From positions 124,001 through 188,000 of the forward strand of contig NZ_CP010975.1 in assembly GCF_000981765.1 (NCBI RefSeq): DNA of 64,000 nt, written 5' to 3'. Position numbers and translations under genes: made by a program. The notes under the pieces were generated by a model. It saw only the letters and a program-made list of their open reading frames with translations, had not been told where the DNA came from and searched no databases. Position 1 is the stretch's first letter; each line of letters opens with the position of its first letter. Below, piece after piece: positions 21,906 to 25,538 of this stretch. This DNA is from Kangiella geojedonensis. GTDB taxonomy: Bacteria > Pseudomonadota > Gammaproteobacteria > Enterobacterales > Kangiellaceae.

Positions 21906-21934
21906 AGTTTTTTCGAACTGAGTACTTGACTTGA

Positions 21935-21961
21935 AAAGCCAGCGTTAGCTGGCTTTTTTTA
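21935..21961 (+). terminator. Intrinsic terminator of gcvP
   Basis: A 9-bp stem (AAAGCCAGC / GCTGGCTTT) with a GTTA loop runs into seven or eight T, 30 bases past the gcvP stop. It isolates the glycine genes from the borosin pair. Confidence 0.93.
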
Positions 21962-22029
21962 TAGGGCTGAGGTATAAATGGATCTTTTGGCTTGAAACGC
22001 ATGTATTACGGGGAACTTAGGGAACTAGT

Positions 22030-22251
22030 ATGTCTAAAAAGAAATTTGAAGAATTCGTTATTAAACTGTCAGAAGACCCAAAATTAAACCAATCCTATAT
22101 TGAAAACCCAGAAGCAGTAATGAAGGATTTTGGTTTAGAAGATAATGAAATTAAAGCTGTGATGACCGGGGAAACAAAAGAAATAGAAAAGTTAACGGGC
22201 ACTAAAGCAGTTTGTATTAATATCGTTATGCTAATGAAAGATGACAAATAA
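22030..22251 (+). CDS. Split-borosin RiPP precursor peptide (SonA-like)
   Basis: A 73-residue peptide. Residues 1-57 read as a helical binding domain with the pattern ENPEAVMKDFGLEDNEIKAV then MTGETKEIEKLTG. This is the leader arrangement I recall from SonA of Shewanella oneidensis. After it comes a short hydrophobic tail AVCINIVMLM and the charged end KDDK. In split borosins the enzyme binds the helical domain and N-methylates backbone amides in this tail; I63 and I65 occupy a position comparable to the sites I remember for SonA. The gene overlaps the methyltransferase by 11 bases, so the two are co-translated. AGGGAA precedes the ATG. Residue-level core assignment is inference. Confidence 0.85.
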   Translation: MSKKKFEEFVIKLSEDPKLNQSYIENPEAVMKDFGLEDNEIKAVMTGETKEIEKLTGTKAVCINIVMLMKDDK

Positions 22252-23023
22252 AAAAAAAGGCTCATATATTGCGGTTAGTACCGGGATATTACTTGCAGGC
22301 CACATCTCGGTTCGAGCAAAAAAGGTTATCGAGGAGGCTGATGTAGTGTTATCTCTGATGCCTCACCCTTTAGCTGAAAACTGGTTGGATAGTATTAGCA
22401 GGGAGCATATTAGTCTGCAGTCCTATTATTCGGAAGGAAAGCATAGAAAGCAATCTTACAGCGAGATGTGCGAACGAATACTGGAGGAAGTCCGTAAAGG
22501 TAAGCGTGTTTGCGGAGCATTTTATGGTCATGCTGGTGTTTTTGCTTGTGTCCCCCATGACTCTATCAGACTGGCTCAAGAAGAAGGTTACTCGGCCTAT
22601 ATGGAGCCGGGAATTTCTGCTGAAGCTTGCCTCTATTCAGATTTAGGTATCGACCCAGGAAGTTATGGGGTTCAAAGTTATGAAGCTTCTCAGTTTCTGT
22701 TTTACAGCCACCAACCAAATGTAGTGAGTTACCTTTTATTATGGCAGGTAGCACTGGCTGGAGAATTAACGGCAAAAACATTTAAAACTAACGAACAAAA
22801 TGTAAAAGCTTTGGTGGATTACCTCCTACATTGGTACCCACCAGAACATGAACTTATACTCTATGAAGCAGCGTTTTTGCCACTAGAATCGATTAGAAAA
22901 GAAAGGGTAAAGCTGGTGGATTTGCCAAGCATAGTCTTAAACCTGCATACGACATTAGTTGTGCCTCCAGCTAGAAAAATGAATATTAACAATGAGTTAG
23001 TAGAGAGGTTGAGAGTAGACTGA
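22241..23023 (+). CDS. Split-borosin peptide backbone alpha-N-methyltransferase (SonM-like, tetrapyrrole-methylase fold)
   Basis: A 260-residue SAM enzyme of the tetrapyrrole methylase superfamily. GILLAGHISVRAKKVIEEAD is the N-terminal strand and helix. The segment YYSEGKHRKQSY (62-73) keeps Y63, R69 and Y73 at the spacing of the catalytic Tyr/Arg/Tyr of fungal OphMA. YGHAGVFACVPH and MEPGISAEACLYSDLGIDPG are borosin versions of the usual YGHPGVF and LPGxSAEDC motifs, with Ala replacing Pro and Asp. These features separate it from CobA/RsmI-type methylases. It should methylate the product of the overlapping upstream gene repeatedly on main-chain nitrogens. Codons 4-6 are a run of nine A, prone to slippage. 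Confidence 0.87.
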   Translation: MTNKKKGSYIAVSTGILLAGHISVRAKKVIEEADVVLSLMPHPLAENWLDSISREHISLQSYYSEGKHRKQSYSEMCERILEEVRKGKRVCGAFYGHAGVFACVPHDSIRLAQEEGYSAYMEPGISAEACLYSDLGIDPGSYGVQSYEASQFLFYSHQPNVVSYLLLWQVALAGELTAKTFKTNEQNVKALVDYLLHWYPPEHELILYEAAFLPLESIRKERVKLVDLPSIVLNLHTTLVVPPARKMNINNELVERLRVD

Positions 23024-23087: not shown

Positions 23088-24176
23088 ATGATAGAACGCC
23101 AGGGATTCTCAATGCTTAAGCTAGTATTAATACTGATGATGTTACTCTGTGTAACTACGGTGAAAGCAGTGGAAAATAGAAATTACACAGCGGAATTAGT
23201 GGAGATAGAAAAAACACTTCTGAATGACTTACCGGCATCGCGTGAGCGCTTGGAGCTAATCGGGCAACACAAAGACAATTTTTCAGTTAAAGAAAAGCAG
23301 CATCATCAATTGCTGAATGCCCACCTGCTTTTCATGATGAATGATGTTGATAACGCTCAGGTTTCTTTAGAGGATCTTGCGAGTAATACATTAAGCCCAG
23401 ATTATGATGCAAGAAAGCAAATGCTGTTATCAGCAATTTATCATCATAGAGGTGAAAGCGTAAAAGCTTTTATGGCTGTTGACCGTTCATTAAATTTAAT
23501 CGAGAAGTTAAATAGTAATCGTTATAAATCAAAGATCTTAATAGGTGCGGTGGGTATATATAAGGATGCCGACTTGATAGAGTTCGCTTTAGAGTATGGG
23601 CGCAGAGCGATAAACCTTGCCAATGAGAGTAAAGATGCGGAAACCATGTGCCTAGCTTCGTATGAAATGGGCACTATTGAGTTATTGACTAAAAATTACA
23701 AGATGGCAGAAAATCGGCTCCTAACCGCAAAAGGCTATTGTGACAAAGAAAAAATTGTCATTGCTTCTTACGCAATTGAGTACAGCCTAATGCAGCTAAA
23801 CATCGAAACAGGTAAGGTTGATAGTGCTGAAACAATAGCAAAAGATTTACACTCTAAAGTGGAAATCTATGGTTGGGATGTCTTAAGGTCTGCGACTAAA
23901 ACACTGTATGGACGATTGCTCCTTAACAAAGGTGAGTTGGAATTAGCTAAAAACTTTGGTGAAGCGGGCTATCAAATTGCAAAAAAAGTGAAAGATAAAA
24001 AAAGGATTGAAAAAGCTGCCGCACTGTTGGCTGAAGTCTATACTGAGCTAAAGGATAATGATAAAGCTGTTAACTATTACAAAGAGTATATGGAGTTGAA
24101 TGTTCAGAATAAAGTACGGATCAGGCAAAGAAAACTAGCATTTGATATTGCACGCAGAAAACAATTTGATGAGTAG
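23088..24176 (+). CDS. Secreted TPR-repeat protein, first of two paralogues
   Basis: About 360 residues, with a signal peptide MLKLVLILMMLLCVTTVKA and then TPR-like helical repeats. Recognisable repeats include FALEYGRRAINLANESKDAE, YKMAENRLLTAKGYC and NDKAVNYYKEYMEL. It ends RIRQRKLAFDIARRKQ. The architecture resembles the periplasmic TPR sensor of TPR-GGDEF proteins, cut where the membrane helix and GGDEF would begin. It lies 64 bases after the borosin methyltransferase with no terminator between, so co-transcription is possible. Two starts are available, 23088 (AAGGA upstream) and 23112 (AGGGA upstream); the latter gives the tidier signal peptide. Confidence 0.8.
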   Translation: MIERQGFSMLKLVLILMMLLCVTTVKAVENRNYTAELVEIEKTLLNDLPASRERLELIGQHKDNFSVKEKQHHQLLNAHLLFMMNDVDNAQVSLEDLASNTLSPDYDARKQMLLSAIYHHRGESVKAFMAVDRSLNLIEKLNSNRYKSKILIGAVGIYKDADLIEFALEYGRRAINLANESKDAETMCLASYEMGTIELLTKNYKMAENRLLTAKGYCDKEKIVIASYAIEYSLMQLNIETGKVDSAETIAKDLHSKVEIYGWDVLRSATKTLYGRLLLNKGELELAKNFGEAGYQIAKKVKDKKRIEKAAALLAEVYTELKDNDKAVNYYKEYMELNVQNKVRIRQRKLAFDIARRKQFDE

Positions 24177-24476
24177 GTGGTGATGATTTAGTTGAAATAG
24201 GAGGGAAGGCATAAGGAGGCTTGTACAGAGTTAGCGGGAAGTAAGTGACTTAAACTGTAGTGTTTCAACGAAATGGGTATTACTCAACCATCTCATACAT
24301 CGATCAAAGCGGTGCCACTGTCGTAGTTATACGTAAAGAATTTATACACCCTACATTAATCACAGTAACAAGATAAAGACAAGCGGTCATAAGATAATAC
24401 AAAGAATGTTGACTTGTTTGCCATCATAAAGGAAGTACTAGCAGTATAGAAAACTAAAGTTTATCAGGAGCGATAT
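24177..24476 (+). other. Gene-free spacer between the two TPR genes
   Basis: Three hundred AT-rich bases with no open frame of interest and no clear terminator. TTGACT near 24410 could be a -35, but no matching -10 lies at 16-18 bases. A ribosome site CAGGAGCG sits before the second TPR gene. Nothing else was recognised. Confidence 0.5.
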
Positions 24477-25538
24477 ATGAAACCAAAAAACATGGTATGT
24501 GCTTTTGTATTGATCATTAGTACTATGGTGGTTAATGCCGAAAGAGGCGATTATTTTGATGCTCTGGTGACACTTGAAAGAAACATGCTGAACGGAAACA
24601 GTTATGTAAAAAAGCGACTACAGGAAATGTCGCAGCATCAAAAGAAATTCACGCGCTTAGAAAAGGATTTTTACCAACTTCTTCAGGCTCATCATGATTA
24701 CTTATCTTCTAACTTAGAAGCCTGTAAAGAACGATTAAAACCTTTAATAAAGAAAACCAACAGTATTGATATTAAAGCGAAAGCAAATATTTTATTAGCA
24801 ACCGCTGATCATGTTCTAGGGAATCATGTTGAAAGTTTTATAGCTTTAGATAAAGCCGTTAAAGCTGTTCCTAACCTAACAAGACAAAGGTACAAGGCCA
24901 GTATTTTACAAACGGCTGTTGGGATATATCAGCAAGCTGAATTATTTGAGTTTGCACTAGAGTTAGCTCGAAACTTGCAAGTTGAAGCTACAAAGTTAAA
25001 GCATGGTGAATACCTCTGTATTGCCAATTATGAATTAGGGGTGATAGAGCAGAGAACCAATCAAATCAAGATGGCTAAGCAACGCTTAATGCTGGCAGTC
25101 GAGCATTGTAAAAATAATAACAGTAAGATTTTTGAGTATGTTTCAACTATAGCGCTTAATGAGATCAAAACTAACTCAGGTGAGTACGAGGCAAGCAACC
25201 AAGAATTAAAGAAAATCTTAGAACCAGTAAATGCAATTGGCTGGAAAAATTTAATGACACAGTTGAATATAGCTATTGCGAAAAACTACGTGGGGATGGA
25301 GGATTATCATCAAGCAGAAAAATATGCACGTGTTGCATACAACCGAGCAACCGAGGGAAAGGATAGGAGAAGATTGCAAATTGCAACAGAAGTTTTAGCC
25401 CACATATACTCTAGCAATGGTAATAAGGAAAAGGCTATTGAGTACTACAAAAAGTTTGCGGAACTCAACTCTGAAAATAAAATAAAAGTTAGGGAAAGGA
25501 AAATAGCTTTTGATATAGCGAGACGGGTAAGTCAATAA
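24477..25538 (+). CDS. Secreted TPR-repeat protein, second of two paralogues
   Basis: A 353-residue paralogue of the protein at 23088. It has a signal peptide (MKPKNMVCAFVLIISTMVVNA), the same opening (YFDALVTLERNML against YTAELVEIEKTLL), the same repeat layout (YHQAEKYARVAYNRA, KEKAIEYYKKFAELN) and the same ending RERKIAFDIARR. A clear duplication with strong divergence. The function is unknown; a periplasmic scaffold or sensor is likely from the TPR fold. CAGGAG lies eight bases before the ATG. It is AT-rich and lysine-rich like the three genes before it. Confidence 0.8.
   Translation: MKPKNMVCAFVLIISTMVVNAERGDYFDALVTLERNMLNGNSYVKKRLQEMSQHQKKFTRLEKDFYQLLQAHHDYLSSNLEACKERLKPLIKKTNSIDIKAKANILLATADHVLGNHVESFIALDKAVKAVPNLTRQRYKASILQTAVGIYQQAELFEFALELARNLQVEATKLKHGEYLCIANYELGVIEQRTNQIKMAKQRLMLAVEHCKNNNSKIFEYVSTIALNEIKTNSGEYEASNQELKKILEPVNAIGWKNLMTQLNIAIAKNYVGMEDYHQAEKYARVAYNRATEGKDRRRLQIATEVLAHIYSSNGNKEKAIEYYKKFAELNSENKIKVRERKIAFDIARRVSQ

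What the first reader, a model, noticed from the sequence alone, without database searches (positions are those of the whole stretch)
22030..23023. Split borosin RiPP pair: precursor peptide and backbone N-methyltransferase
A 73-residue peptide with a helical binding domain and a hydrophobic tail (AVCINIVMLM) overlaps by 11 bases a 260-residue tetrapyrrole-fold methylase. The enzyme keeps Y63, R69 and Y73 at the spacing of the OphMA catalytic residues and borosin forms of the SAM loops. Established: borosins N-methylate peptide main-chain amides, and split forms such as SonM/SonA exist in Shewanella. New here: a distinct core sequence, Ala in place of conserved Pro (YGHAGVF) and Asp (SAEAC), and a different neighbourhood. 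The end product and biological role are unknown.
Basis: partly seen in the sequence, partly recalled or inferred. Interest (0 to 1): 0.9.

Follow-up and report, generated by a model that had tools for sequence, protein, structure and literature searches.

The report
Borosin peptide genes with TPR partners
The window holds a gene pair that very probably makes a backbone-methylated peptide (a split borosin), and beside it lie genes for receptor-like TPR proteins whose relatives accompany most of the related gene pairs examined, so these little-understood peptides may be signals sensed by TPR receptors.

Summary
Window 22030-22251 encodes a 73-aa precursor whose leader matches the SonA borosin-binding domain in sequence and predicted fold. 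Window 22241-23023 encodes a SonM-type methyltransferase (E 2.9e-77 to SonM; cobalamin methylases at best 0.023) with all four SonM active-site residues tested. It is a type IV split borosin by sequence; activity is untested.

Two genes downstream (23088-24176, 24477-25538) encode TPR proteins with signal-peptide-like starts. A gene of this family lies within 3 kb of 137 of 148 related methyltransferases examined, including a locus whose enzyme is 98.8% identical to SonM. In 115 of the 137 the TPR domain is joined to a diguanylate cyclase (GGDEF) or histidine kinase domain; in the window it is not. TPR genes are rare beyond 3 kb in the same stretches, co-vary with their own methyltransferase, and in the genus 55 of the 60 strongest TPR places lie beside one.

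Most likely reading: the peptide is the ligand of a co-encoded extracytoplasmic TPR receptor. Binding, export and cleavage are inferred. A figure legend in print already names a GGDEF domain among borosin architectures, and key papers could not be read, so part of the link may be known.

The parts
21933..21958 (+). Intrinsic-terminator-like hairpin after gcvP, which probably separates the glycine-cleavage operon from the borosin operon
   Evidence: Stretch 21925-21965 folds at -17.3 kcal/mol, z -4.8, 0 of 200 shuffles as good. The terminator scan did not list it, perhaps because the stem pairs into its own T tail.
22030..22251 (+). Borosin precursor peptide, 73 aa (SonA-like)
   Evidence: phmmer vs SonA E 8.4e-10; AF2 model, pLDDT 73, superposes on SonA; dN/dS 0.023-0.025 in window comparisons
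22030..22200 (+). Leader: borosin-binding domain, residues 1-57 (helical bundle)
   Evidence: Residues 7-60 align to SonA 5-58; helices H3-15 to H49-56 in the model
22207..22236 (+). Predicted core AVCINIVMLM, residues 60-69. By offset from the Gly near the end of the leader, the positions matching SonA's methylated Leu63 and Ile65 are Ile65 and Met67 (inference)
   Evidence: Alignment; SonA sites as stated in PMC11285071 (passages); core conserved in close relatives
22241..23023 (+). Split borosin alpha-N-methyltransferase, 260 aa (SonM-like), overlaps the precursor by 11 bases
   Evidence: PF00590 TP_methylase E 1.7e-15
22427..22459 (+). Active-site residues Y63, R69, Y73 (SonM Y58, R67, Y71)
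   Evidence: Alignment of 148 relatives plus SonM
22523..22546 (+). SAM-loop motif YGHAGVFA with Y95 (SonM Y93)
23088..24176 (+). TPR1: 362-aa TPR protein predicted to be extracytoplasmic; N-terminal signal-peptide-like stretch; no GGDEF or kinase domain; Cys188/Cys218 pair
   Evidence: Pfam TPR_12 E 5.1e-10; AF2 pLDDT 88.8, pTM 0.82; hydrophobic start and Cys pair; 64 bases after the methyltransferase
24477..25538 (+). TPR2: 353-aa paralogue of TPR1 (32% identity); its hydrophobic start is weaker
   Evidence: best 19-residue hydropathy 1.52, just under the 1.6 threshold; no structure was predicted

Best explanation
This is a type IV split borosin operon: precursor, methyltransferase, TPR1, TPR2. 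Shown by sequence and structure comparison: the methyltransferase is a SonM-type enzyme and the precursor carries a SonA-type binding domain. Inferred: the enzyme N-methylates backbone amides in the hydrophobic C-terminal core (first guess Ile65 and Met67), the core is released by a cellular protease, and the N-methylated peptide crosses the inner membrane, perhaps without a dedicated exporter. It then binds in the groove of the co-encoded periplasmic TPR proteins. In most relatives examined the TPR domain is joined to a GGDEF or histidine kinase domain, so binding would alter c-di-GMP or a phosphorelay. In the window the TPR proteins are output-less; they may act as soluble peptide receptors or buffers that work through another TPR sensor, for example the TPR-GGDEF protein of the second borosin locus in the same genome.
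For: Family. TPR link: 137 of 148 methyltransferase ORFs in 142 loci have a TPR-sensor gene within 3 kb (nearest one: GGDEF 90, histidine kinase 25, no output 22), 136 of the 137 on the same strand. TPR genes per kb fall from 0.348 (0-1.5 kb) to 0.032 (1.5-3 kb), 0.0025, 0.0026 and 0 further out. Several different syntenic sites are used. Reverse direction: of 76 TPR places found in the 20 genus genomes, the 60 with E <= 1e-30 were tested and 55 lie within 5 kb of a methyltransferase. Co-variation: r = 0.77 over 129 pairs, 0 of 2000 within-genome shuffles reach it, and the cognate TPR is closer in 79 of 82 comparisons. The closest bacterial folds to TPR1 in the 50 rows shown are mostly peptide-pheromone receptors: RapI, Rap with its peptide, phage Rap, NprR. 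Both Cys of a pair are present in 97 of 98 GGDEF-type and 35 of 39 output-less TPR proteins, and 144 of 162 have a hydrophobic N-terminal stretch, which fits an extracytoplasmic location. A locus with a 98.8% SonM enzyme has a TPR-GGDEF gene.
Against: No binding, methylation or c-di-GMP result exists. I saw no conserved protease or exporter gene in the loci tabulated, which were labelled by cluster and not all annotated. The window's TPR proteins lack an output domain. Four Kangiella genomes keep an output-less TPR gene at the gcv-mutH site without a borosin pair there, so TPR and pair are not strictly bound. TPR-GGDEF relatives with no enzyme or precursor found in the fetched stretch exist (L206-L209, L212-L214; L207 and L208 are short contigs). 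The Cys pair is in only 3 of 25 kinase-type TPR proteins. The Rap similarity is a generic TPR-superhelix match at 10-16% identity, and eukaryotic LGN ranks higher by E-value. Co-variation shows inheritance as a unit, not contact. Of nine enzymes found outside the own genome in the class-wide sample, the six most distant (27-36% identity, L108-L113) lack the TPR gene. Many relatives (43 of 148) have an acidic-tailed precursor for which passive membrane crossing is implausible unless the tail is removed.
Confidence: 0.5

Rival explanations
1. The pair is a type IV split borosin, but the TPR proteins are handling factors: they bind the modified peptide to carry, protect, export or detoxify it, and the GGDEF or kinase domain of relatives only adjusts supply to need.
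For: TPR domains are general protein and peptide holders (general knowledge); in the window they have no output domain and occur in tandem; the peptide core is very hydrophobic.
Against: The nearest TPR protein carries a signalling output on the same polypeptide for 115 of 148 methyltransferases, which suits sensing better than carrying.
Confidence: 0.2
2. The pair is a conventional natural product (antibacterial or metal-related) and the TPR sensor is only a regulator that responds to some other cue and sits in the same operon.
For: Many biosynthetic clusters carry regulators (general knowledge); the labelled neighbours of the window locus (gcv, mutH, nudix) are housekeeping genes.
Against: The precursor is highly conserved among close relatives (dN/dS 0.023-0.025 in window comparisons), unlike a fast-changing weapon; the partner is the same TPR family at different sites.
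Confidence: 0.2
3. TPR and borosin genes are neighbours by shared ancestry of one cassette and have no functional link.
For: Co-inheritance would also give the co-variation seen; four genomes keep the TPR gene without the pair at that site.
Against: The cassette keeps its make-up across different syntenic sites, gene orders (TPR before or after the enzyme) and output domains. Genome-wide presence also agrees: 31 of 34 TPR-positive genomes in an order-wide sample of 119 are methyltransferase-positive (lists compared by hand).
Confidence: 0.07
4. The enzyme is not a borosin enzyme but another tetrapyrrole-fold methylase, and the small ORF is unrelated.
For: The Pfam family is the broad TP_methylase; YGHAGVF departs from the usual Pro.
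Against: SonM E 2.9e-77 against 0.023 for the best cobalamin enzyme; active-site residues kept; precursor matches SonA in sequence and fold.
Confidence: 0.02

Closest known systems
SonM/SonA, type IV split borosin of Shewanella oneidensis (PMC8429565, abstract, one section and passages seen; PDB 7LTC and others)
   Same: Separate enzyme and adjacent precursor of about 70-75 aa, 49% identity of the enzyme, same active-site residues, same binding-domain fold. A locus with 98.8% SonM identity also has a TPR gene next door.
   Different: Core AVCINIVMLM with a Cys instead of the SonA core; precursor before the enzyme and overlapping it; YGHAGVF; TPR proteins without GGDEF, in tandem; located between gcvP and mutH.
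Borosin architecture classes in PMC11395268 (introduction, Figure 1 legend and passages seen; the figure is not held)
   Same: Class 3 of the legend (binding domain and core in one protein, methyltransferase separate) fits the pair. The legend also explains the abbreviation GGDEF, so a GGDEF domain is drawn in at least one architecture: a GGDEF link is at least partly in print.
   Different: The text does not say where the GGDEF domain sits; tetratricopeptide, TPR, diguanylate and histidine kinase do not occur in that text. In the window there is no GGDEF domain.
RRNPP peptide quorum-sensing pairs (Rap/Phr, NprR)
   Same: Small peptide gene beside a TPR superhelix protein; Rap, phage Rap and NprR are among the best bacterial structural matches to TPR1.
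   Different: Here the precursor has no signal peptide and carries a methyltransferase-binding leader, the peptide is presumably backbone-methylated, the organism is Gram-negative and the TPR protein is predicted to be extracytoplasmic. RRNPP features are recalled, apart from the abstract start of PMC10075063 in the listing.
RcbA/RcbB of Vibrio vulnificus (PMC12282931, abstract and passages seen)
   Same: A TPR protein without GGDEF works with a TPR-GGDEF diguanylate cyclase through TPR contacts, a precedent for output-less TPR proteins steering a cyclase.
   Different: No peptide gene or methyltransferase appears in the abstract or passages I saw; relation to the present TPR family was not tested.
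Fungal fused borosins (OphMA)
   Same: Homologous methyltransferase domain (E about 5e-41).
   Different: In fungi the core is fused to the enzyme; here enzyme and precursor are separate.

Membership tests
Type IV split borosin | Methyltransferase and precursor encoded as separate, adjacent genes | tested here: met
   73-aa and 260-aa ORFs overlapping by 11 bases
Type IV split borosin | Enzyme groups with SonM/OphMA rather than cobalamin or other tetrapyrrole methylases | tested here: met
   SonM 263 bits, OphMA 144 bits, best precorrin methylase 17.6 bits; best NCBIfam match YabN 33 bits against a cut-off of 525. No tree was built
Type IV split borosin | Active-site residues SonM Y58, R67, Y71, Y93 | tested here: met
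   Y63, R69, Y73, Y95
Type IV split borosin | Precursor with SonA-type borosin-binding domain and C-terminal core | tested here: met
Type IV split borosin | Backbone alpha-N-methylation of the precursor by the enzyme | not testable with these tools
   Needs co-expression and mass spectrometry
RRNPP quorum-sensing pair | Peptide-receptor TPR protein encoded beside a peptide gene | tested here: inconclusive
   TPR genes adjacent and Rap-like fold; peptide binding untested
RRNPP quorum-sensing pair | Propeptide secreted through an N-terminal signal peptide (feature recalled) | tested here: not met
   The precursor starts with the charged helix of the binding domain; best 12-residue hydropathy starting in residues 1-30 is -0.13
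RRNPP quorum-sensing pair | Cytoplasmic receptor | tested here: not met
   TPR1 begins with a hydrophobic signal-like stretch and has a conserved Cys pair; location is predicted, not shown
TPR-GGDEF or TPR-histidine kinase sensor | Transmembrane helix plus GGDEF or kinase output domain | tested here: not met
   TPR1 and TPR2 end after the TPR region; the second locus of the same genome does have GGDEF

The most novel reading that the evidence does not exclude
Type IV split borosins are a Gram-negative peptide signalling system: a backbone-N-methylated ribosomal peptide is the ligand of a co-encoded extracytoplasmic TPR receptor that controls c-di-GMP or a phosphorelay, and the window shows a derived form in which the receptor has become a set of soluble, output-less TPR proteins.
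Probability: 0.4. Interest if true: 0.88.

Novelty: new variant of a known kind. Interest (0 to 1): 0.62.

Why it matters
No role for bacterial borosins was given in the passages I could read. A frequent TPR sensor partner, also beside an enzyme 98.8% identical to the founding SonM, turns 'what are bacterial borosins for?' into a direct test: does the methylated peptide bind the TPR domain and switch the cyclase or kinase? If so, it would add a class of modified peptide signals, hint that backbone methylation may serve stability or membrane passage of a signal, and provide a chemical handle on c-di-GMP control.

Tried and rejected
Considered and rejected: a cobalamin or siroheme-type methylase; anti-phage defence (PADLOC gives only a generic TPR model for TPR1 at E 1.5e-6); simple read-through from the gcv operon (a hairpin follows gcvP; no convincing promoter: 10 promoter-like sites against 10.6 expected). 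The 300-base gap between TPR1 and TPR2 was tested as a repeated element: no second copy in the genome. The TAL-effector repeat hits of a SonA-like precursor are taken as a summed-repeat artefact because no single stretch passes the threshold.

Limits: gene calls in relatives are mechanical ORFs. The TPR profile was seeded with 74 proteins from the same loci. Nine methyltransferase places listed were not fetched (hand count). A precursor was found by profile for 120 of 148 enzymes; the looser classing leaves 15 of 148 without one, 8 of them also without a TPR gene. dS was saturated for most pairs with the farthest relative, L055; the relatives L004 and L002 compared with each other give 0.059, 0.120 and 0.099 for precursor, enzyme and TPR1. 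The 2x2 table assumes that no unlisted genome carries a methyltransferase.

Literature: papers I tried to open and could not: Imani 2022, Lee 2024, Crone 2023; Cho 2022 was seen only as a citation. Searches listed only 20 of 3481 and 15 of 883 papers, so they do not prove absence. One search listed 30 of 32 papers since 2019 that hold 'borosin'; I looked inside seven of them, and searched three for GGDEF and TPR words: PMC8429565 and PMC11285071 have none, PMC11395268 has GGDEF in a figure legend. Borosin with Kangiella: no paper.

Full report
WHAT IS THERE. The window is G000:C1:124001-188000 of a 2.495 Mb genome. The three named loci found with the methyltransferase are all Kangiella (87-91% identity), so the genome is taken to be a Kangiella. 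Between gcvP and a gene labelled mutH-like from its cluster (label recalled, no family search) lie four genes on the plus strand: a 73-aa precursor (22030-22251), a 260-aa methyltransferase (22241-23023), and two TPR proteins of 362 and 353 aa (23088-24176, 24477-25538). The gene names gcvT, gcvH, gcvP and mutH are likewise recalled from sequence. A strong hairpin follows gcvP at 21933-21958 (z -4.8), so the group is probably its own transcription unit (inference).

THE PAIR IS A TYPE IV SPLIT BOROSIN BY SEQUENCE. The enzyme matches SonM at E 2.9e-77 and OphMA at about 5e-41; the best precorrin methylase reaches only 0.023. SonM Y58, R67, Y71 and Y93 correspond to Y63, R69, Y73 and Y95 here, kept in 146, 146, 147 and 146 of 148 relatives. 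The kinetic importance of these residues in SonM is reported in PMC8429565 (passages seen). The precursor matches SonA over residues 7-60 at E 8.4e-10. A predicted model from four sequences (pLDDT 73) finds SonA chains as the 30 best of 44 fold matches; target TM is 0.89 and 0.91 and rmsd 1.4 and 0.8 A for the two best, and TM 0.60-0.91 over the 30; the best Foldseek E-value is only 0.016. In window comparisons the precursor has the lowest dN/dS of the operon, 0.023-0.025 against three relatives, compared with 0.06-0.09 for the enzyme and 0.08-0.18 for TPR1. PMC11285071 (passages seen) places the two methyl groups of SonA on Leu63 and Ile65; the same offset from the leader's last Gly gives Ile65 and Met67 here (inference).

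SAEAC is also the SonM sequence; Ala stands there in 63 of 148 and Asp in 79. YGHAGVF is real but Ala is shared by 20 of 148, 17 of them from the Kangiella gcv-site loci.

DISTRIBUTION. Of 61 genomes in the relatives set, 42 have a match, including all 20 of the genus and 15 of 17 others of the family; one of the 42 is a weak match (E 6e-4). In a class-wide sample 10 of 369 genomes have one, the own genome included; in an order-wide sample 95 of 394. The own genome has a second locus at C1:924559-925311: precursor, TPR-GGDEF, methyltransferase.

THE TPR PARTNER. I examined 142 loci with 148 methyltransferase ORFs (nine further places were not fetched). A TPR-sensor gene lies within 3 kb of 137 of the 148; for the nearest one the output is GGDEF in 90 (86 within 1.5 kb on the same strand, 3 farther, 1 on the opposite strand), histidine kinase in 25 and none in 22; 11 enzymes have no TPR gene. 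Of the 11, L052 and L114 are near contig ends, L108-L113 are the six most distant enzymes of the class-wide search (27-36% identity; the other three found there, at 42-47%, have the TPR gene), and L152 (first enzyme), L191 and L194 are unexplained. Pfam confirms GGDEF in three and a histidine kinase in one of the examples tested. Two of the distant, TPR-less enzymes have an MFS transporter next door instead. A precursor was found by profile for 120 of 148 enzymes and by looser rules for 133 of 148.

CONTROLS. In the same stretches the density of TPR-sensor genes falls from 0.348 per kb at 0-1.5 kb to 0.032, 0.0025, 0.0026 and 0 in the outer bins (148, 13, 1, 1 and 0 genes). Pairwise distances of 129 enzyme-TPR pairs from 91 genomes correlate at r = 0.77; reassigning TPR proteins among loci of the same genome (35 genomes have two or more) gives a mean of 0.47 and a maximum of 0.61, 0 of 2000 reaching the observed value; the cognate TPR is the closer one in 79 of 82 comparisons. 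This shows that the two are inherited as a unit, not that they touch. In the genus, one search lists 76 TPR places; I tested the 60 with E <= 1e-30, and 55 lie within 5 kb of a methyltransferase. Of the 16 rows left out, one (G003:C168) is a cut TPR gene beside an enzyme and the rest are weaker matches in longer frames. The five exceptions, in four genomes, sit at the same gcv-mutH site where the borosin pair is absent; those genomes carry pairs elsewhere. Of 42 enzymes in the genus, 41 have a TPR gene within 5 kb; the other is on a short contig. Order-wide, 34 of 119 genomes have a TPR match at E <= 1e-15; hand comparison gives 31 with both, 3 with TPR only (G476, G492, G506) and 1 with enzyme only (G049), Fisher p 5e-24 if no unlisted genome has an enzyme. 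TPR-GGDEF relatives with no enzyme or precursor in the fetched stretch exist (L206-L209, L212-L214).

THE FOUNDING SYSTEM. Locus L196 carries an enzyme 98.8% identical to SonM over 254 residues and a precursor matching SonA over its whole length (E 1.8e-38), with a TPR-GGDEF gene right after it (GGDEF E 7e-39). I could not open the S. oneidensis MR-1 record itself. In the main text of PMC8429565 the words GGDEF, sensor, tetratricopeptide, TPR, diguanylate and histidine kinase do not occur.

WHAT THE TPR PROTEIN LOOKS LIKE. TPR1 is predicted as a helical TPR superhelix with high confidence (pLDDT 88.8, pTM 0.82); residues 1-27 have low confidence, as for a signal peptide. TPR2 was not modelled, and its N-terminal hydropathy is just under the transmembrane threshold (1.52 against 1.6). 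The best matches of TPR1 in the PDB are LGN/Pins, many in complex with partners; the best bacterial ones are RapI, Rap with its peptide factor (TM 0.65), phage Rap with pheromone, and NprR. This is a generic fold match at 10-16% identity and only suggestive. Cys188 and Cys218 are both kept in 97 of 98 GGDEF-type and 35 of 39 output-less TPR proteins but in only 3 of 25 of the kinase type. With the N-terminal hydrophobic stretch (144 of 162) and the transmembrane helix before the output domain in the loci, this fits a periplasmic TPR domain.

MECHANISM, AND WHAT IS INFERRED. Supported: family, fold, gene order, partner. Inferred: methylation of the core, release, export, binding, signalling. 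I saw no conserved exporter or protease in the table. Backbone methylation is described in PMC8429565 (abstract start) as favouring membrane permeability, which would suit a hydrophobic core such as this one but not the acidic-tailed precursors of 43 of 148 relatives unless the tail is removed. RcbA/RcbB (PMC12282931, abstract and passages) shows that a TPR protein without GGDEF can steer a TPR-GGDEF cyclase, so the output-less TPR proteins of the window could act through the second locus. This is speculation.

NOVELTY. The pair is a new member of a known kind. The TPR partnership, and its output-less form here, is what I would call a new variant. A GGDEF domain is named in the legend of Figure 1 of PMC11395268 on borosin architectures (the figure is not held), so a GGDEF link is at least partly in print; the TPR words are absent from that text. 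The most relevant papers are not held or were seen only as citations, so fuller prior description is possible.

Noticed in passing
L035:6576-9345 (G000:C1, second locus of the same genome): Second split borosin locus of the host genome: SonA-like precursor ending YPVVVHNVKEHNL, TPR-GGDEF protein of 572 aa, then the methyltransferase.
   Followed up: partly
L152:7840-8274 (- strand): A 144-aa ORF overlapping a SonM-type methyltransferase carries seven tandem KALII units (mostly ASHKALIITPKAQ): a multi-core borosin precursor candidate. L037-L039 precursors have two related cores (LLLLEP...LLLLTP).
   Followed up: no
e.g. L043:8765-9073, L045, L051, L076: 43 of 148 methyltransferases lie beside a precursor with a core like ICxLVPAEDD and a long acidic tail, 41 with a TPR-GGDEF gene and 2 with a TPR-kinase gene. 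A GNAT-type acetyltransferase family is present in 23 of 63 loci (Pfam check of one).
   Followed up: partly
L179, L188, L116, L119, L121: Five loci with Asn-rich precursor tails (such as NNNTDNNV) all have a TPR-histidine kinase; two further such loci (L108, L114) have no TPR gene in reach. Core type may go with receptor type.
   Followed up: no
L109:9428-10315, L110:4535-5767: Distant methyltransferases without a TPR gene have an MFS transporter directly downstream, perhaps an export route.
   Followed up: no
L202-L205: Four Kangiella genomes keep one or two output-less TPR genes between gcvP and mutH with no borosin pair at that site.
   Followed up: partly
window 24177-24476: About 300 bases without a listed gene lie between TPR1 and TPR2, where L004 has a 2-base gap; no second copy in the genome.
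   Followed up: partly
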